From assembly GCA_903912525.1 (NCBI GenBank), contig CAIWHK010000047.1, positions 1 to 47,451 on the forward strand: 47,451 nt of DNA, read 5' to 3'. The notes under the pieces were generated by a model. The model was not told the origin of the DNA, searched no databases, and saw only the letters and a list, made by a program, of their open reading frames with translations. Below are positions 3,846-29,416 of the stretch, piece by piece. Position 1 is the first letter of the stretch. Each line of letters begins with the position of its first letter. This DNA is from an uncultured bacterium. Its GTDB lineage: Bacteria > Krumholzibacteriota > Krumholzibacteriia > LZORAL124-64-63. The translations under genes and the position numbers were made by a program.

Positions 3846-3868
3846 CTCCATGTTGCCGATCCTGCACG

Positions 3869-9060: not shown

Positions 9061-9077
9061 TGTGCGATTACTGCACG
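9061..9077. promoter_or_regulatory. activator-like palindrome TGTGC-N7-GCACG
   Basis: TGTGCGATTACTGCACG matches the shared form TGTGC-N7-GCACA with one mismatch in the last base. It lies upstream of the sigma54 promoter at 8972-8987, at nearly the same distance (83 bp) as the site at 12930-12946 from its own promoter. Confidence 0.55.
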
Positions 9078-9189
9078 CGATTTCACTCCGGAAGGGGCGC
9101 CTCGCTTCCGGCGCGGACCGGCCTTCCGGCCCACGGTGCGGCGCCTGTTTGGGGGCACAAGGGCGGCAGTCGCCGGCGACCGGGCCCGC

Positions 9190-9230
9190 GACAAAAGAAA
9201 CCGCCCACCCGTCTGGCGACGGATGGGCGG
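9190..9230 (-). terminator. intrinsic terminator of the BPL_N/beta-helix gene
   Basis: CCGCCCACCCGTC (9201-9213) and GACGGATGGGCGG (9218-9230) form a 13-bp stem with one mismatch and a four-base loop. On the minus strand it is followed by TTTCTTTTG. It lies 39 bases past the stop at 9269. Confidence 0.8.
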
Positions 9231-9268
9231 CACCGTCGGCGCAGGCCGGCGGACGTTTGCGAAGGCCC

Positions 9269-13003: not shown

Positions 13004-14074
13004 CTAACGCGTGCCCGCGCGGGCGTCGCGGACCGGTCGCCGGCACCAGAACAGCGCCCCCGCGATGAGCGCCAGCGCACCCAGCAGCAGTCGATGGTCA
13101 ACCCGGCGCACCACGTCCGGCCGGCCGGTGTCCCGGTAATCCCGGCCCGGCTCGGGATCCAGCCCGTACTGCATCGCCAGGTCCCGGATCGACAGCAGGT
13201 TGATGACGGGAACACCCTTCTCGTGCAAGCGCGTCGCTGCACCGCGCCCGGGACAGTTGCAGACGGAGCCCGCGGGCCAGCGCCCGGTCGGCAGGGACTC
13301 CGCGTGCGGGCAGCGGCCGAGCGCCGCCTGGCCGCCGCCGACGTTGACGACCGCCGCAAGGCGTGGCACATCCAGGAATGCGAGCCGCACCGCGAACGCT
13401 TCGTCGAGGTCGCGCGGAACCACCGCCGTGCGGGCATGCCGCGCCAGGGCCTCCTGCAGCCAGGCCCGCCCCTCGTCGTCCATCCCGCCGCCGTTGTCGC
13501 CCTCGCCCCCGAGCGTCACCAGTTCCTGCGTGGCGGACACCGCCCCCGCGGCGCGGGCCCAGTCCTCGATGTCGAGCCAGGTCGCCAGGCGGCCGTTGGC
13601 GCCGTACGTCGACGCGCCGAGCGACACCGCCACGTACGACTGCGCGCCCAGTTCCTGCGCGGCCGCCAGCGTGGCGATGGCCAACCCCGGGAACGAGCCC
13701 GAGGCGAGGATGCCGACCACATCCCCCGGCCCCACACCGGCGCCGTCGAGCAGGTCGACCATGACGGCGGCCCAGGCGGGATTCGTCGCCGCCTCCTTCG
13801 CCGACAGCGTGCCGAGCGTGGTGGTGATGGGCGTGTAGTCCTCGCCGATGAGCGCATGCCAGCGCACCGGTGACGGGTCGGCGGGCATCAACCCGCGCGC
13901 GCGCTTGACCGAATCGACCGCGGCGAAGGCCGCGCGGGTGCGGTCCTCGGCCCGGTGCATCGCTTCCTGCCGGGGATGGGGCACCTGCCGGAAGCCCCAC
14001 GACTGGACGGCGACCCAGCTCGCGGCCGCCACGGCGAACACGAGCAGCAGCCGGCGCACGCCCACAGTCCTCAC
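13004..14074 (-). CDS. pgsW: poly-gamma-glutamate system protein PgsW
   Basis: A 356-residue membrane-anchored protein with an N-terminal membrane segment (LLLVFAVAAASWVAVQSW), a large non-cytoplasmic domain (VVGILASGSFPGLAIATLAAAQELGAQ, YVAVSLGASTYGAN) and a C-terminal membrane segment (LLLGALALIAGALFW). Sequence and position directly after PgsC fit PgsW, a family known from Gram-negatives that carry PgsB-PgsC; its exact role is not established. I chose GTG 14074, whose GTGA overlaps the pgsC stop, with GGGAG eight bases upstream. The longer open frame upstream only shadows pgsC. No PgsA/CapA is present, so PgsW may be the extracytoplasmic partner of the synthase here. This is the last gene of the operon that starts near 21346. 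Confidence 0.82.
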   Translation of the reverse strand: MRTVGVRRLLLVFAVAAASWVAVQSWGFRQVPHPRQEAMHRAEDRTRAAFAAVDSVKRARGLMPADPSPVRWHALIGEDYTPITTTLGTLSAKEAATNPAWAAVMVDLLDGAGVGPGDVVGILASGSFPGLAIATLAAAQELGAQSYVAVSLGASTYGANGRLATWLDIEDWARAAGAVSATQELVTLGGEGDNGGGMDDEGRAWLQEALARHARTAVVPRDLDEAFAVRLAFLDVPRLAAVVNVGGGQAALGRCPHAESLPTGRWPAGSVCNCPGRGAATRLHEKGVPVINLLSIRDLAMQYGLDPEPGRDYRDTGRPDVVRRVDHRLLLGALALIAGALFWCRRPVRDARAGTR

Positions 14075-14514
14075 GACGTCGCTCCCCAGCCGAGCAGCAG
14101 GCCGATCAGCGCCGTCACCACCATCACGATCCCCACCGACAGCACGGTCGGCACGACCTTCTGGCGCACCATGTCGTTGGCGATCAGGCCGGGGATGACG
14201 AAGCCGATGGTGTGCGCCTCGAAGGTCATCGGCAGCGAGGGCGCCAGCGCGCGCTCGACGAGCCACTTGGCGGCGAAGCCCAGCAGCAGAGCCGTCAGCA
14301 GGCGGCGGCGCCCGTACAGGAACGTCCGCGACTCCAGGAACCTGACGGCGCCGTACACGGCGAACGCCAGCAGGACCGTCAGCGCCACGCGTCCGGGCTG
14401 CCGGATGAACAGCGCGAAGTAGGCGGGCGGCACGACGCCGCCGGGCGAGTACCCGGTCAGTTCGAAGTAGCAGAACCCGACCAGCAGGCCGACCAGGAAC
14501 AGGTCCCAGGACAT
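14071..14514 (-). CDS. pgsC: poly-gamma-glutamate synthase membrane subunit PgsC/CapC
   Basis: A 147-residue integral membrane protein of the length usual for PgsC. It begins MSWDLFLVGLLVGFCYFELTGYSPGG, which is the characteristic family start, and has about four membrane segments. It ends with the hydrophobic stretch VLSVGIVMVVTALIGLLLGWG. PgsC forms the membrane part of the ATP-dependent poly-gamma-glutamate synthase with PgsB. Its ATG overlaps the stop of pgsB (TGATG arrangement), and its own stop overlaps the pgsW GTG, so all three are likely translationally coupled and made in balanced amounts. Confidence 0.92.
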   Translation of the reverse strand: MSWDLFLVGLLVGFCYFELTGYSPGGVVPPAYFALFIRQPGRVALTVLLAFAVYGAVRFLESRTFLYGRRRLLTALLLGFAAKWLVERALAPSLPMTFEAHTIGFVIPGLIANDMVRQKVVPTVLSVGIVMVVTALIGLLLGWGATS

Positions 14515-15650
14515 CAGGCCACCTCTCCCGCCTCTTTCGCGCGCAGCGCCAGGCCCAGGCCCCGCGCGTTCCCCATGCCGACCAGCACCGGGCATGCCAT
14601 GTCGGGCGGCGCAGCCACGGGCCCGGCCAGCAGGGCCAGCGAAGCGCGCGCGCCGTGGATATCGTGGACCTTCACCCCGCTGCGGCGCAACAACGCGCGC
14701 GCGGCATGCCGGTGCGAGCCGGTGACGTACACCGCCTCCACGTCGTCGCGCCCGGCAATCCAGGTGCAGAACCGGCGCGTACGCAGGGGCCGGTCGGCGC
14801 GCGTCGCCAGGACCACCGACCACCGGCGCTCGGCGCCCAGCGCGGCGCGCCAGCCTTCCCACAGGGCGGCCAGCGACTCGGTGTCGTTGGCCGAGAATGC
14901 ATCCAGGAGCACGGCCTCGCCCTGCTGCCACGCCACGCGCCGCGGCCTGCCCTCCATCGGCCGGGCCGCCGCCACCATCGCTTCCAGCGCGGCCGCGGAC
15001 GACCAACCGAGCGCCGCGAGCACCTCGTCAGCCAGCAGCACGAGTTCGCGCTGCACCGGCGCCAGCGAAGCGAGCGCGTCGTCAGGTTCCGCCGCCGCCG
15101 GCGTCCTGGCGTCTTCCACGCGCGGCAACAGCGCAACGAGGGCGGAATCACGCGTCACGACGCGGCTCTGCGCAGGCAGCGAGTCGAGGTAGGCCCGACG
15201 CTGCAGCACCGGATCGTCGCCGAGCGTCTCCTGGTGGTCGTCGCGCACGTTGACCAGCGCGATGACCGACGGCAGCAGCAGCCGCGCCTCGGCCTTCATG
15301 AGCTCGGGGGTGATGGTCATCGCCTCGACCACCAGGCAGCGCACCCCGCCGCGCCGGCACTTCCGCAGCAGCCAGCCCTGCTCGGCCAGGCGCGCGCCGG
15401 CGCGCCGCCGGATCACTTCGTCCCCGCCCGGCAGCAGCAGCGTCGGCACGTCACCGGTGATCTTGCCCCAGGTGGCGGGCTCGGCCACGCGCGCGCCCGC
15501 CGTCAGGATGCGCACCAGGCTCGACTTGCCGCGGGTGCCGGTCACCATGATGCGAACGGGCACGCTCTCGCGTGCCCGTCGCAGGGATCGTTGTTCGAAG
15601 AGCAGGAAGGCCACCCAGGCCGCCGTCAGCAGCACGGCCCAGGGAATCAT
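14514..15650 (-). CDS. pgsB: poly-gamma-glutamate synthase ATP-dependent ligase PgsB/CapB
   Basis: A 378-residue Mur-ligase-like amide ligase that adds glutamate to the growing gamma-linked chain using ATP. A short N-terminal hydrophobic anchor (IPWAVLLTAAWVAFLLFEQ) is followed by the nucleotide-binding loop GTRGKSS at residues 38-44. Other family segments are CLVVEAMTITPELM, NVRDDHQETLG and LLDAFSANDTES. Length is close to the usual 390. It begins 18 bases after the gamma-glutamyltransferase stop and overlaps pgsC. Whether the polymer is L-, D- or mixed glutamate cannot be read from PgsB; the exported racemase in the neighbouring operon suggests D-glutamate matters. Confidence 0.92.
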   Translation of the reverse strand: MIPWAVLLTAAWVAFLLFEQRSLRRARESVPVRIMVTGTRGKSSLVRILTAGARVAEPATWGKITGDVPTLLLPGGDEVIRRRAGARLAEQGWLLRKCRRGGVRCLVVEAMTITPELMKAEARLLLPSVIALVNVRDDHQETLGDDPVLQRRAYLDSLPAQSRVVTRDSALVALLPRVEDARTPAAAEPDDALASLAPVQRELVLLADEVLAALGWSSAAALEAMVAAARPMEGRPRRVAWQQGEAVLLDAFSANDTESLAALWEGWRAALGAERRWSVVLATRADRPLRTRRFCTWIAGRDDVEAVYVTGSHRHAARALLRRSGVKVHDIHGARASLALLAGPVAAPPDMACPVLVGMGNARGLGLALRAKEAGEVA

Positions 15651-15668: not shown

Positions 15669-17612
15669 CTAGTCACCGGGCACCGTCTCCAGGGTCTTGG
15701 CATCGAGGACCGACGCCGAGCCGCCGCGGCGCTTGTCCGCCGAACCGACGAAGCCGGTGCCGTCCTCCTTGAAGGCCGCGATCTGGACACCGCCGAAATA
15801 CAGGTCCATGTCGCCCAGGACGCGGACATCGTGGCCCTGTCGCTTCAATTCCTCGACGATCGCCGGCGCCACGCGCGACTCGATGTACAGGTGCTCGTCG
15901 AACTTCTGGGCGAAGAAGCGGGGCGCCTCGTTCGCGGCCTCCACGTCCATGCCGAAGTCGATGATGTTGACCATCACCAGCGCCACCGTGGCGATGATGC
16001 GCCCGGCGCCGGGCGAACCCAGCGACATCAGGGGACGCCCGTCGCGGAACACGAGCGTCGGCGTGATCGACGACCGCGGCCGCTTGTTCGGGCCGATGAG
16101 GTTGGCCGGCGATGCGGTCGAGAAGTTGACGCGGCCGTTGTTCAACAGGATCCCGTTGACCATCGTCTTCGACCCGAAGAAGTTCCCCAGGGTCTGGGTC
16201 AGCGACACCATGTTGCTGTCCGCGTCGATGACCGACAGGTGCGTCGTCGAGCCGCCGTCGAAGTCGTCGTCCTTCTTGCCCTCGCCGGGTTCACGCCTGG
16301 GCGCGGTGCCGGGGGCGGCGGTCGGGGCCGATGTGTCCTTGCCCTCCTTGCGCCGGTTCCAGCGGTCGAACGGGTCGTCGGCCTGGCGCGCCGAACCGGG
16401 ATCCTCGTCCTTGTCGTCGTCCCACTGCAGGCGACCCGGGCGCACTGCGGACGTCGGCGCCGCGGCGGCCGGCGACAGGTTCTCGAACTTGGCCGGGAAC
16501 CCGTAAGGCACGTCCTTGCTGGCGCGGGGCTCGGCGCGGTACGGGTTGATCTCGGCGAACCGCGCCGCCGCGTACTGCTTGGAAATCAGGCCGTTGGCAG
16601 GGACGGTCATGAAGCGCGGATCGCCCAGGTACTGGCTGCGATCCGCGTAGGTGCGCCGGAAGATCTCGGCCATCATGTGGATGTCGCGCGCCGAACTCGA
16701 GAAATGGTCCCTCGACTCGAACTGCACGTGCTCCATCATGTTGAGGATCTCCAGCAGCGTCGCCCCCGAATGCGGGGCCGGCGCCGTTACGACCTCCACG
16801 CCACGATAGGTGCCGCGCAGCGGCTCGCTCAGCGTCGGCTTGAAGGCCGCCAGGTCCGCCAGCGTCATCACGCCGCCGGCCGCGGTGACGCCCTCGACCA
16901 ACCGCTCGGCGGTCTCGCCCTTGTAGAACCCGTCCGGCCCCTGGGCCGCGACCAGTTCCAGCACATGGGCCAGCTCGGGCTGCTGCAGCAGCTCGCCCTC
17001 CATCTTCGGGAACCCGTTGTTCATGAAGATCGCGGCCAGCGGCGGCCGCGCGGCCAGCGCATCCATGTTGTCCAGCAGCAGGCCGGCAAGCGTCGGGTCG
17101 ACGGGGAAGCCCTCGCCGGCGTAGCGGATCGCCGGGCCCAGCACCACCGGCAGCGGCAGGGTCCCGTAGTCGCGCAGCGCCTGGCACAGGCCCGCCACCG
17201 CGCCGGGCACCAGGGCCGACTTGGCGGTGTCGCGCTCCCGGCTGGCCGAGAACGAGATCGAGGCGGGATCCTGCGGCGCCTGCGGGTAGTAGTTGATGTA
17301 CACCGTCCGGCGCTGGTCGTGCAGGTAGATCAGCATGCCGCCGCCGCCGCCGATGCCCGAGCCGTCGGGCTCGACGACGCCGATCGCGAAGGCCGCCGCG
17401 ACCGCGGCGTCGACGGCGTTGCCGCCGCGGGAGAGCATCTCGTTGGCCGCCTCGGTCGCGAGCGGGTGCGCCGTGGCGGCGACGCCGCCCGCACCGGCGG
17501 CCAGCGCCGTGGACCACACGAAGGCCAGGATCAGGAACAGGAGTCCCGCCCAGGCGGTCCGGCGGAACCGGCCGCGAAGCCGCTGATGGAGCCCGGCAGT
17601 CGGATGCATCAC
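15669..17612 (-). CDS. ggt: gamma-glutamyltransferase (PgsD/CapD-like), membrane anchored
   Basis: A 647-residue N-terminal-nucleophile hydrolase that cleaves or transfers gamma-glutamyl bonds. A signal/anchor segment (WAGLLFLILAFVWSTALAAG) places it outside the inner membrane. The large-subunit part has HPLATEAANEMLSRGGNAVDAAVAAAFA and GIGGGGGMLIYL. Autocleavage is expected before Thr456 in STTHLSV, followed by GSPGAGRII in the small subunit. Unusually, an insert of about 75 charged and proline-rich residues (roughly 375-450, with DDDKDEDPG and GKKDDDFDGG) sits just before the cleavage site. In capsule systems CapD trims or anchors the polymer; here it may depolymerise or transpeptidate poly-gamma-glutamate. 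The start overlaps the DUF6305 gene stop by four bases. Confidence 0.9.
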   Translation of the reverse strand: MMHPTAGLHQRLRGRFRRTAWAGLLFLILAFVWSTALAAGAGGVAATAHPLATEAANEMLSRGGNAVDAAVAAAFAIGVVEPDGSGIGGGGGMLIYLHDQRRTVYINYYPQAPQDPASISFSASRERDTAKSALVPGAVAGLCQALRDYGTLPLPVVLGPAIRYAGEGFPVDPTLAGLLLDNMDALAARPPLAAIFMNNGFPKMEGELLQQPELAHVLELVAAQGPDGFYKGETAERLVEGVTAAGGVMTLADLAAFKPTLSEPLRGTYRGVEVVTAPAPHSGATLLEILNMMEHVQFESRDHFSSSARDIHMMAEIFRRTYADRSQYLGDPRFMTVPANGLISKQYAAARFAEINPYRAEPRASKDVPYGFPAKFENLSPAAAAPTSAVRPGRLQWDDDKDEDPGSARQADDPFDRWNRRKEGKDTSAPTAAPGTAPRREPGEGKKDDDFDGGSTTHLSVIDADSNMVSLTQTLGNFFGSKTMVNGILLNNGRVNFSTASPANLIGPNKRPRSSITPTLVFRDGRPLMSLGSPGAGRIIATVALVMVNIIDFGMDVEAANEAPRFFAQKFDEHLYIESRVAPAIVEELKRQGHDVRVLGDMDLYFGGVQIAAFKEDGTGFVGSADKRRGGSASVLDAKTLETVPGD

Positions 17613-18160
17613 TTCGCGATCACCTCTTCCAGCGGCTTCATGGCCTCGGCCATGTTCTTGACCGGCTTCAGCGGGATCATGGAGCCGGCGCAGGCCTGAG
17701 TAAAGAAGCCGTCCTCGTCACCCTGGTCCACGATGATAACAGTCGCGGACGCCTCGGCCACGAGCTTGTTGAAATCGTCCGACTGCACGCCGCGCCGGGC
17801 CTTGCCGCCCAGGTGCACCGTCAGCACGGGAATGCCCGCCGCCTTGGCCGCGGCCAGCAGGTTCCTGACCCGCGCCAGTTCGTCCTCGCGGCTGACGCCG
17901 GCCGAGCCCAGGCCCTTTGAACTGTAGCCCGGCACCACCATCAGGGTCTTGAAGCCCTTGAGGTCGGCGGCCGTCGCCGTCACTTTCGAGGTGTAGGTGA
18001 CCTTCAGGCGGTCGAGCAGGACGCCGGCCAGCTTGACGTCCACGCTCTGGCCCGCGGTCGTCAGGAGGATCGGCTGCTGGAACTTGGTCTCGGCCGCGGA
18101 GGCCGACAGCGCGGCCAGCGATGCAATCACGATCGCCAGCAGGAGGAGCTTCTTCATCAT
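17609..18160 (-). CDS. exported DUF6305 family protein
   Basis: A 183-residue protein with a signal peptide (KKLLLLAIVIASLAALSASAAE). The body has segments I associate with DUF6305: FQQPILLTTAGQSVDVKL, DLKGFKTLMVVPGYSSKGLG, VLTVHLGGKARRG and VDQGDEDGFF. The function of the family is unknown. The fold looks like a small Rossmann-like alpha/beta domain that could bind a small ligand in the periplasm. It sits between the porin and gamma-glutamyltransferase genes, overlapping the latter by four bases, so it is probably a periplasmic partner of the gamma-glutamyl system. AGGA lies seven bases before the ATG. Family assignment is from memory of the motif pattern. Confidence 0.7.
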   Translation of the reverse strand: MMKKLLLLAIVIASLAALSASAAETKFQQPILLTTAGQSVDVKLAGVLLDRLKVTYTSKVTATAADLKGFKTLMVVPGYSSKGLGSAGVSREDELARVRNLLAAAKAAGIPVLTVHLGGKARRGVQSDDFNKLVAEASATVIIVDQGDEDGFFTQACAGSMIPLKPVKNMAEAMKPLEEVIAK

Positions 18161-18213: not shown

Positions 18214-19500
18214 TTAGAACTGCACCCTGAACTCGAACATCAACCGGTTGGCCGTGACCTTGTCCTCGATCTGGGAGATGTTGCCGTCCCCGTTCTGGTC
18301 GAAGTCGCCGCCGTTGGGGATGCGCCTGAAGTAGCGACCCTGGACCGAGACGTTGTCGTTGATGTCGTAGTAGAGCTTCACGCCGAACTCGTCGTCGGGC
18401 TCGGTGTAGTTGTCGTTGTTCACGTAGTCGGCGACGGTGACGTACTGGAGCTGGATCCGCGACTTCGGCAGGAACGTCGGGCTGACATAGACCCGGCCGT
18501 ACCAGACCCGGCTGCCCTCGACCTGCTTGTCGTGGTTGGGGTAGTCGCCGCCGATGTTGCCGTTGGCGTACCCCGTGCGATCGCCCCACCACCACGAGGG
18601 ATAGTAGGGGCTGAACATCTCCTCGTCGGCGGTCGCCGCATCGTCGCCCTGGTAGGCGGCCGTGCGGATCTCGGCCTTGGCCGAGCGGACGTGCGGCATC
18701 GACCAACCGTAGCTGACGCCGGCCATGTAGCCGATCCCGCCCTTGTCCGGCAGCCCGGCCGGCGTGTTCCAGGTCTGCTGCGCGATTTCCGCGAAGTACA
18801 GCAGCTTGGGCAGGACGATGTTCCCGGACGCGCCGGCGCCGACGATGATGTTGTCATTGAAATCGCCGCGCTTCTTCTCGTAGACCGTGTAGGCCAGCAG
18901 CGTGTGCTCCTTCAGCGCGTACTGCGCCTGCGCCACGTACAACTGGTCGCTCTGCGGCTCGGGATAGAAACCGTCGGGCGTCAGCGCCTGCTCGGTGACG
19001 GCGCCGAACACGCCGAGCGTCCAGGCATCGCGGGCGAAGTCGACGCGGATCCCGTCGTAGTCGTCGATCTGGTAGTAGCTCTCGCCCAGGGTCAGGCCGC
19101 TGCCCAACTCGTAGTGCTGCCGGCCGAAGCGAACGCGGGCCATGTCGAACCCCAGGATGTCCGGCTGCGTGAACTCGCCGTAGATCTGGCTGATCCCGAA
19201 CCGGATGCCGCCGAGCCCGGCCAGCGAACGCGACGGGTAGACCGGGTTGTCGCTGATCGTCACGAGGTCCGTCCGGAACCGGCCGTTGGTGCCGAGCGGG
19301 GCCAGCGCCGACAGCTGGCCCATGAACCGCATGTACTCGAGGTTCTCGCGGTTGTCCCGGTCGCCCGAGAACGACTCCCAGTAGTTGCGCGTCATGAAGT
19401 CGCCGCTCAACTGGAACTGGGCTCGGGCCGCAGTCGCGGCGAGCGACAGGGCCGCCGCGACCAGGACCATGAGACGGTTGCTGTGCTTGGACATCTGCAT
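18214..19500 (-). CDS. outer-membrane porin-like beta-barrel protein
   Basis: A 428-residue protein with a signal peptide (RLMVLVAAALSLAATAARAQ). Alternating amphipathic strands run throughout, and it ends in a terminal aromatic strand (NRLMFEFRVQF) typical of barrels inserted by the BAM complex. The pattern (FGRQHYELGSGLTLGESYYQIDDYDGIRVDF) resembles the alginate-export/AlgE-like porin group. I start it at ATG 19500, where a signal peptide begins and GGAG lies just upstream; the upstream residues in the longer frame look non-coding. It follows the lipoprotein gene by about ten bases. In context it is the likely outer-membrane channel for export or uptake of poly-gamma-glutamate or its fragments. 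An acidic EF-hand-like stretch, FDQNGDGNISQIED, lies near the C-terminus. Confidence 0.8.
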   Translation of the reverse strand: MQMSKHSNRLMVLVAAALSLAATAARAQFQLSGDFMTRNYWESFSGDRDNRENLEYMRFMGQLSALAPLGTNGRFRTDLVTISDNPVYPSRSLAGLGGIRFGISQIYGEFTQPDILGFDMARVRFGRQHYELGSGLTLGESYYQIDDYDGIRVDFARDAWTLGVFGAVTEQALTPDGFYPEPQSDQLYVAQAQYALKEHTLLAYTVYEKKRGDFNDNIIVGAGASGNIVLPKLLYFAEIAQQTWNTPAGLPDKGGIGYMAGVSYGWSMPHVRSAKAEIRTAAYQGDDAATADEEMFSPYYPSWWWGDRTGYANGNIGGDYPNHDKQVEGSRVWYGRVYVSPTFLPKSRIQLQYVTVADYVNNDNYTEPDDEFGVKLYYDINDNVSVQGRYFRRIPNGGDFDQNGDGNISQIEDKVTANRLMFEFRVQF

Positions 19501-19510: not shown

Positions 19511-21346
19511 CTAGTTCTGGCTGAAGGCCAGGCCGGTCGGTGTTGCGGTCCCCCTGCCGGGTACCTCGACGGTCCTGAGGACCGTGCCGTCCGGCGCAAC
19601 CTGGAAGATGTAGTCGAAATCGCCGGTGCTGTTGACGATCCAGAAACTCACGCCGTCCCACGTCATGCCCGTGGCGAAACGGTTGGTGGTTGTACCGGCG
19701 GGCGGAATGGGCGTCGTGAAGACCGTGGTCCAGGTGGATGACCCGGGATTCCACATCAGGACCGTGTCGGCGTCCTTGTCGTTGGCGTACAGGGCGCCGT
19801 TCGCCCACGCCGTGCCGCGGACGCCGACGCTGGGCGCGGCGATGGTCTCCAGGACCGAGCCGTCGTCCGTGCTCAGGCGGTAGACCGAGAGCGAGCCGTC
19901 GTTGGGCACCCACAGGTCCGTGCCGTCGAAGGCCATGTCGCGCACGGTGCCGGCGCCGGCGGGCGGCGCCTGGAAGCTCGCGGTGACCGACAGGACGCCG
20001 CCCGTGGTGTCGATGGCGGCGATGAAGTCGTCGGTGCCGGCCGCGGCCAGCCACAGGCGCGTGCCGTCGAAGGCCAGGCCCTGCACCGAGCCGCCCGGGG
20101 CGATCGTGGCCGTCGAATACGAGGCGACGAAGGTCCCGTCGTTGATCGAATAGCGGTAAAGCAGCCGCGCGCCGCTGTCCACGAGCCACAGGAACCCTGT
20201 GGACGGGTCGACATCGACGACATGGAACAGCCCGGCGCCGACGCCGCTCTTCCCATCGGAATTGGTCACCGTGACGTCGCGCGCACCGAGGTCGGCGTCC
20301 GCATCGATCGAGATGTAGGCCGTCAGCGACATCGAGTTCGCCACGGTCAGGGAGTCGACGACGACGCCGACGCCGAAGGACGCCGTCAGTCCGTCACGGA
20401 ACCCGGACCCGGTGACCGTGACGGTCTTGCGGGCCCGCGGACCGCCGGTATTGGGCGCCACCTGCACGACCACGGGCGCCGCGGGCACGCTCAGGTCGGC
20501 GGCGGCCCAGACCAGCGCGCCCATCTGGGCGTACGGCGGGTCGAACTGCTGCAGGACGGCGCCGGCCGAATCCATCCGGAACAGGTAGTCGGCGAAGCCG
20601 CTGCTGTTGGTCGACCAGAAGTCCTGCCCGTCGAAGGTCAGGCCCACCGGGTAGACGTAGTTCGCGCCACGCGCGCCGACCGGCGCGGGGACCCCGGGGT
20701 GGAAGACCGCCCGAGCGGTCTCGAAGACGTGGACGGTGTCGTCGTCCTTGTCCGTGTAGTAGCAGCCCGCGACGATTCCGGACCCGTAGACGTCCGCGTT
20801 CGCGCCCACGTAGCACAGGCCGCGGGGCTCGCTGCTCGGCAGCGGGTACTGGGCAAGGATGGCCCCGTCGGCCGGGTTGAGCTTGTACAGCGTGGGCGGC
20901 ACGGTATACGTCGTCGAGCCGCTGTTGAGCGCCCACAGGTACTGCCCGTCCCAGGTGATGTCGCGCACCGTGCCCTGACCCGCCGGCGGTGCGGCCAGCG
21001 TCCGCAGGACGACGGCGCCATCGGCGCCCGCAAGGTCGAGCTGCAGGATGGCGTCCTCGTCGCCGGAGATCGCGACCCACAGCGCAGCGCCGTCGAAGGT
21101 CACGCCCTGCAGCGCGGTCTCGGTGGTGAAGTCGGCGAACGGCCAGGCGTGGCGTTCGGCCAGGTTGCGGTCCAGCATCACCAGGCGCTGGGATTCGTTG
21201 TCGACGAGGTAGAAGTACCCGCCCCTGGGCTGGATGCCGGCCTCCTCGTCACCATCGGCCAAGAAGAAGTTGCAGCCGCCGAGGACGGCGATGCACGCCG
21301 CCAGCAGCGGAACCAGGCCAACCCGTCTCCTGAGATTCGCGATCAT
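19511..21346 (-). CDS. beta-propeller lipoprotein with central IPT/TIG domain
   Basis: A 611-residue predicted lipoprotein: the signal peptide ends in the lipobox LGGC with Cys near residue 25. Two sets of propeller-blade repeats follow (GVTFDGAALWVAISGDEDAI, VRDITWDGQYLWALN, GLAFDGTRLWLAAAGTDDFI, VRDMAFDGTDLWVPNDGS). They flank an IPT/TIG-like Ig domain (PNTGGPRARKTVTVTGSGF through VTVTNSDGKSG, about residues 290-370). This architecture suits extracellular ligand or polymer binding. It is the first gene of the Pgs operon, about ten bases ahead of the porin, so porin plus surface lipoprotein may form a binding and transport pair. A sigma54 promoter (21505-21520) lies upstream with a leader of roughly 145 bases. 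Confidence 0.8.
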   Translation of the reverse strand: MIANLRRRVGLVPLLAACIAVLGGCNFFLADGDEEAGIQPRGGYFYLVDNESQRLVMLDRNLAERHAWPFADFTTETALQGVTFDGAALWVAISGDEDAILQLDLAGADGAVVLRTLAAPPAGQGTVRDITWDGQYLWALNSGSTTYTVPPTLYKLNPADGAILAQYPLPSSEPRGLCYVGANADVYGSGIVAGCYYTDKDDDTVHVFETARAVFHPGVPAPVGARGANYVYPVGLTFDGQDFWSTNSSGFADYLFRMDSAGAVLQQFDPPYAQMGALVWAAADLSVPAAPVVVQVAPNTGGPRARKTVTVTGSGFRDGLTASFGVGVVVDSLTVANSMSLTAYISIDADADLGARDVTVTNSDGKSGVGAGLFHVVDVDPSTGFLWLVDSGARLLYRYSINDGTFVASYSTATIAPGGSVQGLAFDGTRLWLAAAGTDDFIAAIDTTGGVLSVTASFQAPPAGAGTVRDMAFDGTDLWVPNDGSLSVYRLSTDDGSVLETIAAPSVGVRGTAWANGALYANDKDADTVLMWNPGSSTWTTVFTTPIPPAGTTTNRFATGMTWDGVSFWIVNSTGDFDYIFQVAPDGTVLRTVEVPGRGTATPTGLAFSQN

Positions 21347-21592: not shown

Positions 21593-23229
21593 TTGGGGCC
21601 AATCCGGACGTTGGACCGCGCTTCGGCGCCACGGGAACGGGCTGTCTTGCATCGCATTGGAACGAAAACACGCTCAGCCTTCCGCAGGCCGCTGACGCTG
21701 GTGGGCGCGCTGCTGGTGGTGCTCGCGGCCGCCGGCCTGCTCTCCGTCCGGGCCCTGCACCACTGGCGCAACGACGTCATCCGGAACAATCTCGCGTTCA
21801 CGAGCGTCGCGGCGGCGGACATGGCCGCGCGTGCCGAGGCGCAGTGGCGGCAATGGCCGGTCCTGGGCCTGAGCGGGGACGTTCCCGTCGTCGACCTGAC
21901 GCCTGAGGACCTTGATCGCAGCCTCAAGGCGATCGCCAACGACGTCTTCTCGTCCGGCCACGCGCTCAAGGGCGGGTTCTGGGTGATCCAGATCGACGAG
22001 TTCACGGGCTACGCCGACCCGTGGTCCCCGCCGCCGGCGCCCGCGTTCGGCCCCCCGCCGCGCTCGTATCCCGTCATCCTCAAGCAGGTCCGGGACTCGC
22101 TGGCGAAGGGCGCGCCCCTCGTCGAACTGCACGAGTTCAACTCGGTGTCCGTCAGCAAGACCGTCTTCACCCTGGCCACGCACCCGGTCCGTCGCGATGG
22201 GCGCGTCGTGGCGGTGGCCTGGGTCCGCATCCACATCGAGAAAGAGCTGCCGGCCGCGAAGCTCACGCCGTTCCTCAACCTGGCCGGGCTGGTCACCCTC
22301 GCGGCCTTCGTGGCCGCGCTGCTGACCACCATGGTCCAGCGACGCGAGATCCACAGCCTGAACGAGAACCTGCGGCTCATCGAGCGCGACCCCTCGCTGC
22401 GCCTGGACCAGCGCAAGGGGATGTTCGGCAGCATCCGCTACGCCATCAACCAGGTGCTCGTCTCGCTCGAGAAGGAAAGCCGGCACCGGCAGGCGCTGGA
22501 AGCGCAGCTGCACCAGCAGGACAAGATGGCCGCGCTGGGCAACCTGCTGGCGGGCGTCGCCCACGAGATCAAGACGCCCCTGGCCATCGTCAAGACCCGG
22601 GTGCAGATCTGGCAGCGCGACCTTGACCGGTACAGCCAGGAAAACGACGTGCCCCCGCCGCTGCAGAACGAATCGATGCAGCTGGTGCTGACCGAGATCG
22701 ACCGCCTGTCGGGGCTGCTGAAGAAGCTGCTCTACTTCTCGCGGCCGGTCAGGCAGGACCAGATGAAGCCCGTCGACATCAACGACCTGGTCCGCCACAC
22801 GGTGCTGTTCGCCAAGCCGCGCATCGTCCAGCGGCGCGTCGACCTGGACCTGAGGCTGGCGGCGGCGAGCGGACAGGTCCTGGGCGATGCGGATTCGCTG
22901 CACCAGGCGTTCCTGAACATCCTGACCAACTCGCTGGACCACGTCGAGGAAGGCGGCCTGATCGCGATCGCCAGCCGCCTCGACCGCGACACCCGGCAGG
23001 TCGTCCTCGACTTCACCGACAACGGTCCCGGGCTGTCGCCGGAGGTCCGCGCGCAGGCGTTCAACCCGTTCTTCACGACCAGGCACGGCGGCTCGGGGCT
23101 GGGCCTGTCGATCACCTACGAGATCATCACGGCGCACCGCGGCACGATCGAATTCGTCGATCCGGAGACGTCGCCGGGCGCCCACTGCCGCATCTTCCTG
23201 CCCCTCGACAAGGCCCCGGCGGAGGAATC

Positions 23230-23233
<4 letters not shown>
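21593..23233 (+). CDS. membrane sensor histidine kinase
   Basis: Up to 546 residues. A membrane segment (LTLVGALLVVLAAAGLLSV), a periplasmic sensor of about 165 residues (Cache/PAS-like in size, unassigned) and a second membrane segment (FLNLAGLVTLAAFVAALLTTMV) are followed by a linker. The HisKA box is VAHEIKTPLAIVK (His324 counting from 21593), and the HATPase domain has NILTNSLDHVEEGG, DFTDNGPGL and GGSGLGLSIT. It should autophosphorylate in response to an extracytoplasmic signal, plausibly glutamate or gamma-glutamyl peptides, and pass phosphate to the overlapping regulator. The start is uncertain: TTG 21593 lies only a few bases after the predicted transcription start, so TTG 21611 or 21647 may be the real one. 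Its stop overlaps the regulator ATG by four bases. Confidence 0.88.
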
Positions 23234-24712: not shown

Positions 24713-24758
24713 TTAGACCTCGGGACAAGGCCCTCAACGTTTCCGAGGAGTGGACCCC

Positions 24759-26036
24759 GTGCTCGCACCGCTTTGGCTCCTGCTGATCATGCTGGTCGTC
24801 TTCGTGGCCTGCATCGTCCTGGCGCGCCTGCCCAACGGGCTGGCCCTGGTCCTGGCCGCCATTGCCGGCTCGCTGGCCGCCGGCCAGGGCGTGCCGATGC
24901 ACCACATGGTCGAGGGCGCGTTCGCCTACATCGACCCGATCCTGCTGATCGCCACGGCGATGGTGTTCATGGCGTCGCTCGAGGACTCGGGCGCGCTGGG
25001 CAGCATCAGTCGCAGCCTGATGATCGGCCTGCACCGGCAACCGGTGCTGCTGATCATGGGCATGACGATCTTCATCATGTTCCCCGGCATGATCACCGGC
25101 CAGTCGACCGCCACGGTGCTGACGACGGGCGCCATCTCGGCGCCGGTGCTGGTGGCGCTGGGCATCCCGCGCGCCAAGGTGGGCGCGATGATCGCGATGT
25201 CCGCGGTTTACGGCATGATCGCCCCGCCCATCAGCCTGCCGACGATGATCATCGGCAGCGGCGTCGACATGCCCTACACGGGCTTCGAGATCCCGCTGCT
25301 CATCGCGACGCTGCCCCTGGCCTTCGCCGTGAACCTGGCGCTGGCCTGGCCGCACCTGCGGCGCATCGACCTGCAGGCGGTCCTGCCCGGGCTGGGCGAG
25401 GACCACGCCAAGCGCTACGGCTTCCGCCTGTTCCTGCCCTTGGTGATCGTCGGCGGCCTGCTGGCGGCCATCCGCATGATCCCGGCCGTTTCGGCCTCGG
25501 TGGGCGTGGCGCTGGTGTTCATGATCGGCGCCCTGGCCGGCGCCGTGACCGGCCGCCGTTTCAACCTGGCCCGCTCGGCGCAGCGGTCGCTGCGGCAGGC
25601 CCTGCCGGTGCTGGGCATCCTCGTGGGCGTGGGCGCCTTCATCCAGGTCCTGACGCTGGTGGGCGTGCGCGGCATGATGGTCGTCGAGGCGCTGGCGCTG
25701 CCCTCGTTCTGGAAGTACGTCGGCGTGGCCGTGATGATGCCGCTGTTCGGCGCCGTCTCGTGCTTCGGCTCGGCCTCGGTGCTGGGCGTGCCGTTCCTGC
25801 TGTCGTTCCTCGGGCACAACGAGATCGTCGTCGGCGCCGCGCTGTCGATGTTCGCGGGCCTCGGCGACCTGGTGCCCCCGACCGCGCTGGCCAGCTACAT
25901 GGCCGCCCAGGTCGTGGGCGAGCCGAAGTACCTGCGCGTCGCGAAGTACACGGCAATTCCCGGCATCATCACCATCCTGTGGGCCATCGGGATGATCCTG
26001 CTGGCCAACCCGATTGCGCGCATCATTCCCCGTTGA
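24759..26036 (+). CDS. TRAP-type (DctM-like) transporter large permease
   Basis: A 425-residue inner-membrane protein with about 12 hydrophobic segments of the DctM/ion-transporter type. Two re-entrant-like motifs recur in the halves: GMIAPPISLPTMIIGSG and GLGDLVPPTALASYMAAQ. TRAP systems take up organic acids, including glutamate, by Na+-driven transport with a periplasmic binding protein. I prefer GTG 24759, with GAGGAG eight bases upstream, over GTG 24750, which lies inside that ribosome binding site. No DctP-type binding protein and no normal DctQ small subunit are encoded here; a 49-residue membrane protein follows instead. The operon context suggests uptake of glutamate or gamma-glutamyl peptides; the substrate is inferred. 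Confidence 0.83.
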   Translation: MLAPLWLLLIMLVVFVACIVLARLPNGLALVLAAIAGSLAAGQGVPMHHMVEGAFAYIDPILLIATAMVFMASLEDSGALGSISRSLMIGLHRQPVLLIMGMTIFIMFPGMITGQSTATVLTTGAISAPVLVALGIPRAKVGAMIAMSAVYGMIAPPISLPTMIIGSGVDMPYTGFEIPLLIATLPLAFAVNLALAWPHLRRIDLQAVLPGLGEDHAKRYGFRLFLPLVIVGGLLAAIRMIPAVSASVGVALVFMIGALAGAVTGRRFNLARSAQRSLRQALPVLGILVGVGAFIQVLTLVGVRGMMVVEALALPSFWKYVGVAVMMPLFGAVSCFGSASVLGVPFLLSFLGHNEIVVGAALSMFAGLGDLVPPTALASYMAAQVVGEPKYLRVAKYTAIPGIITILWAIGMILLANPIARIIPR

Positions 26037-26046: not shown

Positions 26047-26196
26047 TTGCTGCAGACCTGGATCTACCAAGCCATCGTCCTTCTGCTCTGCGTCTTCCTG
26101 GTCTGGGAGATCATCCATGAGCGGAAGTTGGCGCGGCAGCTGACCGCGGCGGTCGTGCTGGTCCCGATGGTGCTTCGTCTGTTGATGATCAAGTAG
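26047..26196 (+). CDS. 49-residue small membrane protein
   Basis: TTG start at 26047, preceded by GAGGAGG with a five-base gap, 10 bases after the permease stop. The product has two hydrophobic segments (WIYQAIVLLLCVFLVWEII and LTAAVVLVPMVLRLLMI) around a charged middle (HERKLARQ), like a helical hairpin. It occupies the operon position where a TRAP small subunit (DctQ, usually about 160 residues with four membrane segments) would be expected, so it may be a minimal accessory subunit of the permease. It does not resemble a DctQ fragment that I can recognise. The strong ribosome binding site and tight spacing make it a real gene. Confidence 0.7.
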   Translation: MLQTWIYQAIVLLLCVFLVWEIIHERKLARQLTAAVVLVPMVLRLLMIK

Positions 26197-26206
26197 GAGT
26201 GTGTCC

Positions 26207-27352
26207 ATGGCCCGCCCGTCGTTCCGCGCCTCGAGGCAAACGCTGATCGCCGCCGGCACCCTGCTGGCCGTCGCGCTGGTCGTGGCGTTCTCGTCCCGCG
26301 CGTTCATCGAGCAGCACAAGGTCGAGGCGCTGCATCCGTCGCCGGCGCTGAAGCGGGTGTTCCCGCTCAGCGAGATCAACCCGAACCTGAAGGGCACGCC
26401 CGGCGACACCGACGTCTACATGTACGAAGGCCCGGGCAAGGGCGGCTCGCTGCTGGTCATCGGCGGCTCGCACGCGTCGGAGATCGCCGGCACCATGACC
26501 GTCGCGCTGCTGGTGGAGACCCTGAAGGTCGACGCCGGCACGGTCTTCCTGATCCCCCACGCCAACGCCAGCGCGATGACGCACGACGAGCCCCAGGAAG
26601 CCCATCCCCGGCACGTCTTCTTCGACACGCCGGGCGGCCGGCGCGCCTTCCGGCTGGGCGCGCGCTTCACCAACCCGGTGCACCAGTGGCCCGACCCGAT
26701 CACCTACGCGCAGCCCGGCTCGGGCACGATGCTGGCGGGCGCCGAGACGCGCAACCTGAACCGCGCCTTCCCCGGCGTCGAGAACGGCAACCTGACCGAG
26801 CGCATCGCCTGGGGCATCACCGAACTGATCCGCCGCGAAGGCATCGACCTGTCGTTCGACATCCACGAGTCGTCGCCGGAATACCCGGTGATCAATGCCA
26901 TCGTGGCCTCGGAGACCAGCCAGGACGTCGCCTCGTACGCGGCGATCTCGCTGCAGTCGGACGGCTGGGAGTTCGCGCTCGAGCCGTCGCCGCCCAACTT
27001 CCACGGCCTGAGCCACCGCGAGTGGACCGACCACACGAAGACCCGGCCGATCCTGCTGGAAACCGCCAGCGCGGTGATGGGCCGCCTGCGCGGGCCCACC
27101 AACGCCGACCTGGCGACCATCGGCAAGGACCCGCAGTACGTCAAGGCCGCGAAGATCGGCGCCATCAGCGTGCCCTTCGACGAGAACGGGATCTCCATCG
27201 AGGTGCGCGTCGCGCGCGACCTGGCCGCCATCGCGGCGATCGTCAGCGCGTTCAACGACCTGGTGCCGGACCGCGCCATCCTGGTGGGCGGCTGGCCCGA
27301 TCCCAAGGAACTGGTCGAGCACAAGCTGGGCGACTATTTGGCGGCGCCGTAG
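26207..27352 (+). CDS. succinylglutamate desuccinylase/aspartoacylase (AstE) family zinc hydrolase
   Basis: A 381-residue protein of the M14-like AstE/AspA group. A hydrophobic N-terminus (TLIAAGTLLAVALVVAF) suggests a membrane anchor with the enzyme outside. Zinc ligands are His89 and Glu92 in GGSHASEIAGT and a later His in SFDIHESS; the RPILLETASA segment may hold the catalytic Glu. Family members remove acyl or amide groups from glutamate or aspartate derivatives, or act as carboxypeptidases. Here the likely role is releasing glutamate from gamma-glutamyl chains or peptides (inference). The ATG at 26207 has AGGAG seven bases upstream. Its position after the permease and before the glutamate racemase supports a glutamate theme. 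Confidence 0.82.
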   Translation: MARPSFRASRQTLIAAGTLLAVALVVAFSSRAFIEQHKVEALHPSPALKRVFPLSEINPNLKGTPGDTDVYMYEGPGKGGSLLVIGGSHASEIAGTMTVALLVETLKVDAGTVFLIPHANASAMTHDEPQEAHPRHVFFDTPGGRRAFRLGARFTNPVHQWPDPITYAQPGSGTMLAGAETRNLNRAFPGVENGNLTERIAWGITELIRREGIDLSFDIHESSPEYPVINAIVASETSQDVASYAAISLQSDGWEFALEPSPPNFHGLSHREWTDHTKTRPILLETASAVMGRLRGPTNADLATIGKDPQYVKAAKIGAISVPFDENGISIEVRVARDLAAIAAIVSAFNDLVPDRAILVGGWPDPKELVEHKLGDYLAAP

Positions 27353-27380: not shown

Positions 27381-28418
27381 ATGCGGTATCCGGTGATCGC
27401 GGGCCTGGTCCTTCTGGCGCTGGCTTGCGTGGGGCAGCCTGCAGCATGGGCTGCCGCCGCCGCTGCTGACCGCCCGCATCTCACGGTCGCGGTAACGGAT
27501 TCGGGCCTCGGCGGCCTGTCCGTGGTCGCCGCCGCCGAACGCAGCCTGCGCGAAGCCGGCGTCACCGCCGACATCGACCTCGTCTTCGGCAACGCCCTGT
27601 TCGACGCCGACAGCGGCTACAACAGCCTTCCCTCCCGCGACGCCAAGGTGGCGATGTTCGACCGCGCACTGGCCGGCCTGGCCGCCGAGTGCCGGCCCGA
27701 CCTGGTCGTCATCGCCTGCAATACTCTGTCCGTTCTTTATAAAGACACTGCGTTCGCCGCGCGTGGAGCCGTGCCGGTCATCGACATCGTGGACTGCGGC
27801 GTCGACCTGATCGCCTCTCGGCTACCGACCGGCGGACCGGGCGCGGTCATCGTGCTGGGCACCGAGACGACCGTCGGCGAAGGCACGCACAAGGCCGCGC
27901 TGGTCGCGCGAGGCTATGGCGCAGAGCGCATCATCACGCAGGCCTGCCCGCAGCTGGCGTCGTGCATCGAGTCGGGATTCGACAGCGAAGAGACGACGTT
28001 CCTGGTCGATGCGTATGTCTCGGATGCGACGGCCGGTTTCGGCGACGCCGTTCCGGCGCCGCTGTACGTCAGCCTGAACTGCACGCATTTCGGGTATGCG
28101 CTGGCGGCGTGGCAGGCAGCGTTCGCGGCGCGCGGCATCGCGGTGGACGGGGTGCTGGACCCGAATCAGTCTTTGGCCGATGAGGCGCGTGGGTGGCTGC
28201 GGGCGCATGGGGTCGCGGATGCGCGGGATGGCGCCGGGGCCGGCAGGGTGAGCGTGCGCGTCGTGTCGATGCCGGAGATCGCGCCGGGGGCCATCGCGTC
28301 GATCTCGCGGTGGCTGCAGGCGGTTTCGCCGGCGACGGCCGAAGCGCTGCGGGGATATGAGCGGCGGGTGGGTTTGTTTTCGACGGGTGATTTGTGGCCG
28401 GGCGCTGGGGCGCGGTGA
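27381..28418 (+). CDS. exported glutamate (Asp/Glu) racemase
   Basis: A 345-residue MurI-like racemase that interconverts L- and D-glutamate. All core motifs are present: VTDSGLGGLSV, ACNTLSVLYK with catalytic Cys113, and LNCTHFGYAL with Cys234 and His236. Unusually it starts with a clear signal peptide (MRYPVIAGLVLLALACVGQP through AWA), which predicts periplasmic or extracellular location, whereas MurI is cytoplasmic. It is therefore unlikely to be the housekeeping peptidoglycan enzyme. It follows the AstE-like gene by 28 bases with no terminator, so it is the last gene of the sigma54 operon. Likely job: isomerising free glutamate released from, or destined for, a D-glutamate-containing gamma-polymer. 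Confidence 0.88.
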   Translation: MRYPVIAGLVLLALACVGQPAAWAAAAAADRPHLTVAVTDSGLGGLSVVAAAERSLREAGVTADIDLVFGNALFDADSGYNSLPSRDAKVAMFDRALAGLAAECRPDLVVIACNTLSVLYKDTAFAARGAVPVIDIVDCGVDLIASRLPTGGPGAVIVLGTETTVGEGTHKAALVARGYGAERIITQACPQLASCIESGFDSEETTFLVDAYVSDATAGFGDAVPAPLYVSLNCTHFGYALAAWQAAFAARGIAVDGVLDPNQSLADEARGWLRAHGVADARDGAGAGRVSVRVVSMPEIAPGAIASISRWLQAVSPATAEALRGYERRVGLFSTGDLWPGAGAR

Positions 28419-28502: not shown

Positions 28503-29402
28503 TCACAGTGCTCCAGGAGATCTCCAACCCCCGTCCGCAGACCACATGAGTAGGAAAGCGCGGCCCTCGGCGATGCTTGTGGCGACGGGCGCCAGGAAAG
28601 CGTCGAGATCTGCGGCTACTTCCAGAAACTCGCGCGGCGCATCGTCCCGCCCCAGACGACGGCGGAACGCATCCCACTGCGCTTGCCTTGCCTGCGCCGC
28701 CAGTGCGCGGAACTGCAGGAGTTCCGTCGGCATGGCCGTGCGCCGGCGATCGAAGGTCCTTCGAATGGCCTCCGCCAGGATGTCGCCGGCAAAAGCGCAT
28801 TGTCGCGACAACAGCCAGACATCGTAGTAGTCCTTCATCCGGCTGTTCAGGACGTCCAGCTTGACCATGATCTGGAACTTCTCCGCGATGGTCGTTTCGC
28901 GACCGTAGCACCACAGGCTTGGCATCGGATGGTCGAGCAGGACTGGGAATGCCATTCTCTTCGCTGGTGGATGAACTGCGTCGCCGAATCCGATATCAAC
29001 CTGGACCACGAAGCGCGCGGTTGTCAGTCGTCCAGGCACGCGCACCCGAAATCCCCCGTATTCGGCATTCCCCTGGATGCGATCGATTCGCATGTCACCC
29101 GGCTGGAACACGAGACCATCGGCCGGAACCGCCACACCGATGATGGACCTCATCCGTCGGTCGATTTCGGCAATGTTGTCCGGCGCCCGGCCCAGCATGT
29201 CGATGTCCATGGTGGGACGCTGCCCCGGAGACTGCCAAACCCGAAGCATGAGCGCCCCCTTCAGGACGAACGCGTCCGCGCTCGGCGAGCAGGACAATCG
29301 ATAGAGAAACCGCTCCATCGCGAAGTATTGCAGAACTTCCGCGAAGGGGCGCTTTTCGTCACGGGCAAGTGTCAACAGTCGTTGGCGAACCGAAGCCGCC
29401 AC
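28503..29402 (-). CDS. abiEii: AbiEii-type nucleotidyltransferase toxin
   Basis: About 300 residues. Toxin half of a type IV AbiE toxin-antitoxin system; known members are DUF1814 nucleotidyltransferases that modify RNA such as tRNA and cause growth arrest or phage abortive infection. Motifs: FVLKGALMLRVW, the metal-binding RPTMDIDMLG and a later KFQIMVKLDVLNSRMKDYYD. The start is uncertain. GTG 29402 gives the usual N-terminus (AASVRQRLLTLARDE). CTG 29420 overlaps the antitoxin stop (CTGA) with GAGG upstream, and a TTG at 29465 is also in frame. The base composition looks lower in GC than the neighbours, consistent with transfer. The antitoxin precedes it directly. Confidence 0.87.
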   Translation of the reverse strand: MAASVRQRLLTLARDEKRPFAEVLQYFAMERFLYRLSCSPSADAFVLKGALMLRVWQSPGQRPTMDIDMLGRAPDNIAEIDRRMRSIIGVAVPADGLVFQPGDMRIDRIQGNAEYGGFRVRVPGRLTTARFVVQVDIGFGDAVHPPAKRMAFPVLLDHPMPSLWCYGRETTIAEKFQIMVKLDVLNSRMKDYYDVWLLSRQCAFAGDILAEAIRRTFDRRRTAMPTELLQFRALAAQARQAQWDAFRRRLGRDDAPREFLEVAADLDAFLAPVATSIAEGRAFLLMWSADGGWRSPGAL

Positions 29403-29416
29403 GTTCCCGGCTGGAT

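What the first reader, a model, noticed from the sequence alone, without database searches (positions are those of the whole stretch)
27381..28418. Glutamate racemase with a signal peptide
All MurI-type active-site motifs are present (Cys113, Cys234, His236) but the protein begins with a clear export signal. MurI normally works in the cytoplasm for peptidoglycan. An exported copy next to a gamma-glutamyl system suggests racemisation of extracytoplasmic glutamate.
Basis: partly seen in the sequence, partly recalled or inferred. Interest (0 to 1): 0.75.

Follow-up and report, generated by a model that had tools for sequence, protein, structure and literature searches.

The report
Exported glutamate racemase of polyglutamate cluster
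This gene encodes a relative of the enzyme that flips glutamate between its two mirror-image forms, but it carries an export signal and sits in a conserved gene cluster for making and trimming the polymer poly-gamma-glutamate, so glutamate handedness is probably adjusted outside the cytoplasm rather than only inside it.

Summary
ORF 27381-28418(+) encodes 345 aa with an export-type N-terminus and the MurI catalytic set (D40, S41, C113, N114, T115, C234, H236), invariant in 32 family members. AlphaFold2 and Foldseek give the glutamate racemase fold. It is not MurI itself: it scores 42.8 bits against a 146.65 cut-off and belongs to a distinct subfamily (invariant N71, Y80-N81, L116). The genome has a separate ordinary cytoplasmic MurI. 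The "gamma-glutamyl system" is a poly-gamma-glutamate (PGA) cluster: PgsB-PgsC-PgsW, gamma-glutamyltransferase (GGT), DUF6305, porin-like, beta-propeller, histidine kinase, sigma54 regulator, DctM-like permease, small membrane protein, AstE/AspA-like peptidase, racemase. It recurs in another genus and in the phylum of an Ignavibacteriales genome. The racemase family occurs in 12 of 14 genomes with the marker DUF6305 and 8 of 461 without it; genomes with the other PgsW type have none (0 of 26). Best reading: a periplasmic racemase that equilibrates D- and L-glutamate freed from PGA by the cluster's hydrolases before uptake. Epimerisation of PGA chains is the most novel reading not excluded. Substrate, activity and export are inferred, not measured.

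The parts
27381..28418 (+). Exported MurI-like racemase, 345 aa (catalytic Cys113, Cys234; Asp40, Ser41, His236)
27381..27455 (+). Signal-peptide-like N-terminus, residues 1-25 (exact cleavage site is a guess)
   Evidence: hydrophobicity; dN/dS
26201..27352 (+). AstE/AspA-like (M14-type) zinc acyl-amino-acid hydrolase with N-terminal membrane anchor; HxxE (H91, E94) and H222 invariant in the three copies aligned
   Evidence: Pfam PF24827 30.4 bits over cut-off 25
26047..26196 (+). Small 49-aa membrane protein, conserved between DctM-like and AstE-like genes
24750..26036 (+). DctM-like permease, no DctP/DctQ gene recognised beside it
   Evidence: PF06808 43.8 bits
23230..24600 (+). Sigma54-dependent response regulator
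21593..23233 (+). Sensor histidine kinase
19511..21346 (-). Secreted/lipoprotein-like beta-propeller protein, syntenic in other clusters
18214..19500 (-). Porin-like outer-membrane protein (by character of sequence; no family match), syntenic in other clusters
17609..18160 (-). DUF6305 protein with signal peptide; marker of the racemase-bearing PGA clusters
   Evidence: PF19823 153.7 bits
15669..17612 (-). Gamma-glutamyltransferase with signal peptide and autoprocessing Thr456
   Evidence: TIGR00066 417 bits over cut-off
14514..15650 (-). PgsB/CapB-like poly-gamma-glutamate ligase
   Evidence: TIGR04012 146.9 bits, E=7e-43, below cut-off 222.7
14071..14517 (-). PgsC/CapC
   Evidence: TIGR04011 99.6 bits over cut-off; PF14102
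13004..14077 (-). PgsW-like poly-gamma-glutamate system protein
   Evidence: TIGR04332 244 bits over cut-off 100

Best explanation
The gene encodes an exported, cofactor-independent (two-cysteine) amino-acid racemase that is a standard component of one subtype of Gram-negative poly-gamma-glutamate (PGA) system. PgsB/C/W make PGA at the inner membrane. The exported hydrolases (GGT and the membrane-anchored AstE/AspA-like peptidase) trim or depolymerise it and release glutamate in the periplasm. The racemase equilibrates D- and L-glutamate there, so that whichever enantiomer the stereospecific permease (DctM-like plus small protein) or hydrolase handles can be taken from both. The histidine kinase and sigma54 regulator control the module. 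Shown by sequence: subfamily, fold, catalytic residues, export-type N-terminus, gene content and its recurrence across phyla, and a separate MurI. Inferred: periplasmic location, glutamate as substrate, direction of flux, role in PGA turnover and uptake rather than synthesis.
For: (1) Catalytic set intact and invariant; MurI fold. (2) Export-type N-terminus in 9 of the 10 relatives with readable N-termini that lie in a cluster or in a cluster-bearing genome, across two phylum groups. (3) PgsB, PgsC, PgsW, GGT, DUF6305 in the window, with the same set in Ignavibacteriales L008, G044, G333 and G392. (4) Co-occurrence: racemase family in 12 of 14 DUF6305-positive genomes against 8 of 461 negative (p=5e-17, genomes treated as independent). 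(5) It tracks the hydrolase/permease type of PGA locus, 11 of 12, and is absent, 0 of 26, from genomes with the other PgsW type; two examples of the latter examined have no GGT, AstE or DctM nearby. (6) G246 keeps racemase, permease, AstE, DUF6305 and GGT but has no PgsC or PgsW anywhere, which fits a degradation/uptake module separable from synthesis. (7) The invariant D40-S41 pair and H236 correspond to the MurI residues that serve the substrate amine and catalytic cysteine (established MurI knowledge); MurI-type catalysis is thought to use a protonated alpha-amine (PMC8142540), so a free-amine substrate is favoured.
Against: No assay; no trained signal-peptide prediction. The family-specific N71/Y80-N81 loop could mean a different substrate. 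Acidobacteria carry exported relatives without PgsC/PgsW, so the family is not tied to PGA. Cytoplasmic-type relatives exist in other contexts. Catalytic thiols in an oxidising periplasm are unusual. A cytoplasmic racemase could serve PGA turnover equally well, so the need for an exported one is not explained. G318 has the cluster without a racemase relative. G246 may simply be incomplete.
Confidence: 0.55

Rival explanations
1. PGA epimerase: the enzyme inverts glutamate residues in the exported chain (at the free-amine end or internally), setting the D/L ratio after export, as periplasmic C5-epimerases do for alginate.
For: Exported and regularly present in PGA clusters. PGA residues keep a free alpha-carboxylate. 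The side-chain loop differs from MurI in every family member (N71, Y80-N81), as might be needed for a gamma-amide. Superfamily precedent for a residue inside a peptide: OpaE (PMC12661438). Review PMC3815933 states that the ligases cannot isomerise, so post-export inversion would be a new source of D-Glu.
Against: MurI-type chemistry is thought to need a protonated alpha-amine (PMC8142540), lacking at internal residues. Conserved D40-S41 suit a free amine. OpaE belongs to the hydantoin/allantoin branch, not MurI. G246 has the racemase without PgsC or PgsW.
Confidence: 0.15
2. D-glutamate supplier: it makes D-Glu outside the cytoplasm from L-Glu for uptake into PGA synthesis, or for peptidoglycan editing or signalling, rather than for turnover.
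For: Same cluster and export evidence; exported racemases that make D-amino acids are known in a different fold (BsrV; PMC7890096, listed).
Against: A canonical cytoplasmic MurI exists in every cluster genome tested, so cytoplasmic D-Glu is already available.
Confidence: 0.12
3. Exported racemase of another substrate (aspartate, pyroglutamate, another gamma-glutamyl acid).
For: Score far below the MurI cut-off; altered side-chain loop; exported relatives in PGA-less Acidobacteria.
Against: Structure and profile are closer to glutamate than aspartate racemases. One Acidobacteria genome (G087) has two family members and no canonical MurI match, as if the family can make D-Glu; that genome may be incomplete.
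Confidence: 0.12
4. Start codon misjudged: translation starts at the in-frame GTG (about 27426) and the enzyme is cytoplasmic.
For: An in-frame GTG lies inside the hydrophobic stretch; the upstream ribosome-binding site is weak.
Against: The N-terminus is conserved under purifying selection and remote homologues independently have signal peptides or lipoboxes.
Confidence: 0.06

Closest known systems
MurI / RacE glutamate racemase (TIGR00067; PDB 3out, 1b73, 1zuw)
   Same: Fold, two catalytic cysteines, DSG, CNT, GT..T and CTH motifs
   Different: Export-type N-terminus; 42.8 bits against cut-off 146.65; invariant N71, Y80-N81, L116; longer C-terminus; sits in a PGA cluster while a separate MurI exists in the genome
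Bacillus Pgs/Cap PGA systems (PgsBCA(E), CapD)
   Same: PgsB, PgsC and a GGT-family enzyme; stereochemistry of glutamate is part of the biology (PMC3815933)
   Different: PgsW-type, with DctM-like permease, AstE-like peptidase, DUF6305, porin-like protein and two-component system; racemase exported, whereas D-Glu in PGA is described as coming from free D-Glu in the cell
Fusobacterium nucleatum PGA (Candela 2009, cited in PMC3815933)
   Same: PGA in a Gram-negative organism
   Different: Its locus was not compared here
BsrV broad-spectrum racemase of Vibrio cholerae (PMC7890096)
   Same: Bacterial racemase linked to cell-wall D-amino acids; periplasmic from general knowledge
   Different: PLP-dependent, unrelated fold, different substrates (general knowledge)
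OpaE and the nocardioazine stereoisomerase, Asp/Glu-racemase-superfamily enzymes (PMC12661438, PMC10156859)
   Same: Superfamily; OpaE acts on an amide-linked residue
   Different: Natural-product tailoring enzymes; OpaE is in the allantoin-hydantoin subfamily

Membership tests
MurI glutamate racemase equivalog (TIGR00067) | Score over the curated cut-off of 146.65 bits | tested here: not met
   42.8 bits, E=4e-11; the genome's other copy scores 211
MurI glutamate racemase equivalog (TIGR00067) | Two catalytic cysteines with Asp/Ser, Asn-Thr and His partners | tested here: met
   D40 S41 C113 N114 T115 C234 H236 invariant in 32 members
MurI glutamate racemase equivalog (TIGR00067) | PYG substrate loop | tested here: not met
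   G-Y-N in most members, N71 invariant upstream; exact register of this loop is uncertain
MurI glutamate racemase equivalog (TIGR00067) | Supplies D-Glu for peptidoglycan in the cytoplasm | tested here: inconclusive
   Indirect evidence against: separate canonical MurI in the genome and an export-type N-terminus; role not assayed
Asp/Glu racemase superfamily (PF01177) | Family profile match and fold | tested here: met
   9 of 13 close relatives match PF01177 at E<=1, best 5e-12; L008 copy 43.5 bits over cut-off 31; the window copy itself has no match; fold met
Asp/Glu racemase superfamily (PF01177) | Racemase/epimerase activity | not testable with these tools
   needs assay
Poly-gamma-glutamate synthesis locus | PgsB ligase | tested here: inconclusive
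   TIGR04012 E=7e-43 but 146.9 bits, under cut-off 222.7
Poly-gamma-glutamate synthesis locus | PgsC/CapC | tested here: met
   TIGR04011 and PF14102 over cut-off
Poly-gamma-glutamate synthesis locus | PgsW-type poly-gamma-glutamate system protein | tested here: met
   TIGR04332 244 bits, cut-off 100
Poly-gamma-glutamate synthesis locus | The organism makes PGA | not testable with these tools
   needs culture or heterologous expression
Exported protein (Sec signal peptide) | n-, h-, c-regions with AxA or lipobox | tested here: inconclusive
   Features present; no trained predictor run

The most novel reading that the evidence does not exclude
A periplasmic PGA epimerase: the polymer is made with one configuration and this MurI-derived enzyme inverts residues (ends or interior) after export, so the stereochemistry of a bacterial polyamide would be set outside the cytoplasm, as for alginate.
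Probability: 0.15. Interest if true: 0.87.

Novelty: new variant of a known kind. Interest (0 to 1): 0.62.

Why it matters
Glutamate racemase is regarded as a cytoplasmic peptidoglycan enzyme, and D-glutamate in PGA is thought to come only from free D-Glu in the cell (PMC3815933). An exported racemase that is a regular part of a conserved PGA cluster would mean stereochemistry can be controlled in the periplasm, and it makes the question of how PGA chirality is set or undone testable with one enzyme and a defined cluster. It also marks a second Gram-negative PGA system type (DUF6305/GGT/AstE/DctM/racemase) distinct from the simpler PgsB-C-W type. The six phrases searched for a periplasmic, exported, secreted or extracellular glutamate or aspartate racemase occur in no paper of the library; that library holds open-licence papers only.

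Tried and rejected
Plasmid collection: no relatives. Peptidoglycan-recycling reading (AmpG-like permease at 30177-31481): the AmpG-like gene was found next to the racemase only in the window's genus, so it is not a stable partner. Only-murI reading: rejected. AlphaFold model of the AstE-like peptidase from 3 sequences was unusable (pLDDT 33.7) and was not interpreted. Secreted protein at 2456-3763 as a PghP-like PGA hydrolase: no Pfam or PDB match beyond a C-terminal sorting/FlgD-like domain, left open. Race-family tree: deep forks unresolved, so no claim that the exported PGA members form one clade. Long branches in the PgsW tree make positions inside the racemase-bearing half unsure; only the 100/100 split of the 26 racemase-less proteins was used.

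Full report
OBSERVATION. The ORF lies exactly where stated (27381-28418, +, ATG, 345 aa). It is related to glutamate racemase (TIGR00067 E=4e-11; solved MurI chains E=5e-9, and 2e-14 with a 13-sequence profile). The AlphaFold2 model (mean pLDDT 88.3, pTM 0.86) has only glutamate racemases as its 46 best PDB matches (3out: TM 0.79 by target length, 20% identity), with aspartate racemases behind. Asp40, Ser41, Cys113, Asn114, Thr115, Thr161, Thr164, Cys234 and His236 are invariant in 32 family members; Thr235 is Thr or Ser.

EXPORT. The N-terminus reads MRYPVIAGLVLLALACVGQPAAWAAAAAADRPH before the racemase domain starts at about residue 34. Its best hydrophobic 12-mer averages 2.97 on the Kyte-Doolittle scale. 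Against the closest relative with an intact N-terminus (L006) dN is 0.064 and dS 0.371 over the first 31 codons, so the segment is translated and constrained (few codons). Among relatives in a PGA cluster or in a cluster-bearing genome, 9 of 10 with readable N-termini have a signal-peptide- or lipobox-like start (window, L006, L008, L062, L064, L067, L074, L080, L081). The tenth, L071, has a hydrophobic stretch upstream of its only recognised start codon; L007 has a frameshift there and was not counted. Relatives in other contexts are mixed: 11 exported-type, 11 cytoplasmic-type. This is a hydrophobicity reading, not a trained prediction.

NOT MurI. The genome has a normal MurI at C9:237095-237835 (211 bits, over cut-off), without extension. 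Ten other genomes with the cluster also have a canonical MurI. The window protein scores 42.8 against a cut-off of 146.65 and has family-specific invariant residues (N71, Y80-N81, L116), the first three in the region of MurI's GD...PYG loop. From established MurI structures this loop helps bind the side-chain carboxylate; I did not test that here, and the alignment register of the loop is uncertain.

SURROUNDINGS. Upstream on the same strand are a histidine kinase, a sigma54 response regulator, a DctM-like permease, a 49-aa membrane protein and an AstE/AspA-like zinc hydrolase with a membrane anchor. Divergently, on the minus strand, are a beta-propeller protein, a porin-like protein, DUF6305, a gamma-glutamyltransferase with its autoprocessing Thr456, and PgsB, PgsC and PgsW. 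PgsC, PgsW and GGT are over their curated cut-offs; PgsB is strong (E=7e-43) but below its cut-off. This is a poly-gamma-glutamate locus.

CONSERVATION OF THE CLUSTER. In the Ignavibacteriales MAG L008 the racemase faces regulator and kinase, and divergently from the kinase run DctM-AstE-DUF6305-GGT-PgsB-PgsC-PgsW. G044, another genus of the window's family, has the full set with the racemase on the opposite strand between two AstE copies. G333 and G392 have the set with a racemase about 12 and 17 kb from PgsW. G183 and G306 carry the racemase beside kinase, regulator, propeller and porin, with PgsW 33 kb away or on another contig. G035 has all markers, but on separate contigs.

CO-OCCURRENCE. 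Two whole-genome samples were searched: 80 genomes of the window's phylum and 395 of the phylum of G082. DUF6305 is in 6 and 8 genomes over its cut-off. The racemase family is in 5 of the 6 and 7 of the 8, against 0 of 74 and 8 of 387 without DUF6305. Pooled, 12 of 14 against 8 of 461, Fisher p=5e-17. In one of the 12 (G238) the racemase is cytoplasmic-type and on another contig. PgsW proteins split into a high-scoring type (26 genomes, no racemase) and a low-scoring type (12 genomes, 11 with the racemase); p=1e-8, or 1e-7 with the window's genus counted once. The 26 lie behind one branch with 100/100 support. The p-values treat genomes as independent and so overstate certainty, but the pattern repeats in two phylum groups. 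Two high-type loci examined have PgsB-C-W without GGT, AstE, DUF6305 or DctM within the 18-19 kb fetched.

MECHANISM. The racemase goes with the hydrolase-permease module rather than with PGA synthesis as such. G246 has racemase, kinase, regulator, permease, AstE-like, DUF6305 and GGT genes but no PgsC or PgsW anywhere, although that assembly may be incomplete. GGT and AstE/AspA-type enzymes act on gamma-glutamyl and N-acyl-glutamate or N-acyl-aspartate bonds, which is the bond type of PGA (family knowledge). The simplest reading is that they free glutamate in the periplasm, the racemase equilibrates the enantiomers, and the permease takes one up. A cofactor-independent racemase needs no PLP outside the cytoplasm and would run both ways, flux being set by uptake. 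These steps are inference.

CHAIN EPIMERISATION. The PGA review states that amide ligases do not isomerise residues, so D-Glu in PGA must come from free D-Glu in the cell (PMC3815933). An exported racemase could break that rule if it acted on chains. Against it, MurI-type chemistry is thought to use a protonated alpha-amine (PMC8142540), present at a chain end but not inside. For it, OpaE of the same superfamily inverts a residue in a peptide (PMC12661438). I give it 0.15.

LIMITS. No activity, location or PGA production was measured. Most genomes used are unnamed or metagenome assemblies, many fragmentary. The exported family also occurs in Acidobacteria without PgsC or PgsW, so PGA cannot be its only context. 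The literature library holds open-licence papers only; within it no paper uses any of six phrases for an exported glutamate or aspartate racemase and none mentions DUF6305.

VERDICT. Observation confirmed; interpretation partly supported and extended: an exported MurI-like racemase that is a regular part of a subtype of PGA gene cluster not described in the papers searched.

Noticed in passing
window 28503-30007 (-): AbiEii toxin (PF08843) and AbiEi-like antitoxin genes lie between the racemase and the AmpG-like gene; in L006 the AmpG-like gene follows the racemase directly, so the pair looks inserted.
   Followed up: partly
window 30177-31481 (-): AmpG-family-like MFS permease (TIGR00901 206 bits, under its cut-off of 350), seen beside the racemase only in the window's genus.
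   Followed up: partly
window 2456-12760 (-): Run of large secreted proteins with FlgD_ig/type IX-like C-terminal sorting domains, one with G8 and one with a BPL_N domain; similar-looking proteins lie beside clusters in L080 and L090 (resemblance by eye; BPL_N shared with L080).
   Followed up: partly
window 2456-3763 (-): Secreted protein whose motifs (SGTHRC, QAHGF, EQAR) recall N-formylglutamate amidohydrolase or PGA hydrolase, with a look-alike in L090 at 3081-6581; no family match.
   Followed up: no
L008:8924-9841, L067:14460-15260, L071:10361-11134, L089:5985-6779, L092:5211-6032: N-formylglutamate amidohydrolase-like protein (PF05013 in L008) recurs in or near the PGA clusters of the G082 phylum group: a further candidate PGA hydrolase.
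   Followed up: partly
L010, L011, L013: Acidobacteria with two family members each, one cytoplasmic-type and one exported-type, 1-8 kb apart. G087 (L013) shows no canonical MurI match, so the cytoplasmic member may be its glutamate racemase, if the assembly is complete.
   Followed up: partly
window 17609-18160 (-): DUF6305 has no paper in the library and marks this PGA cluster type almost perfectly (14 of 475 genomes).
   Followed up: yes
L025, L027, L028, L030, L035, L039: High-type PgsW proteins with open frames of 675-692 aa, possibly fusions with another domain.
   Followed up: no
L007:8690-10026: Apparent frameshifts in the AstE-like gene and the racemase N-terminus in this assembly; not interpreted.
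   Followed up: no
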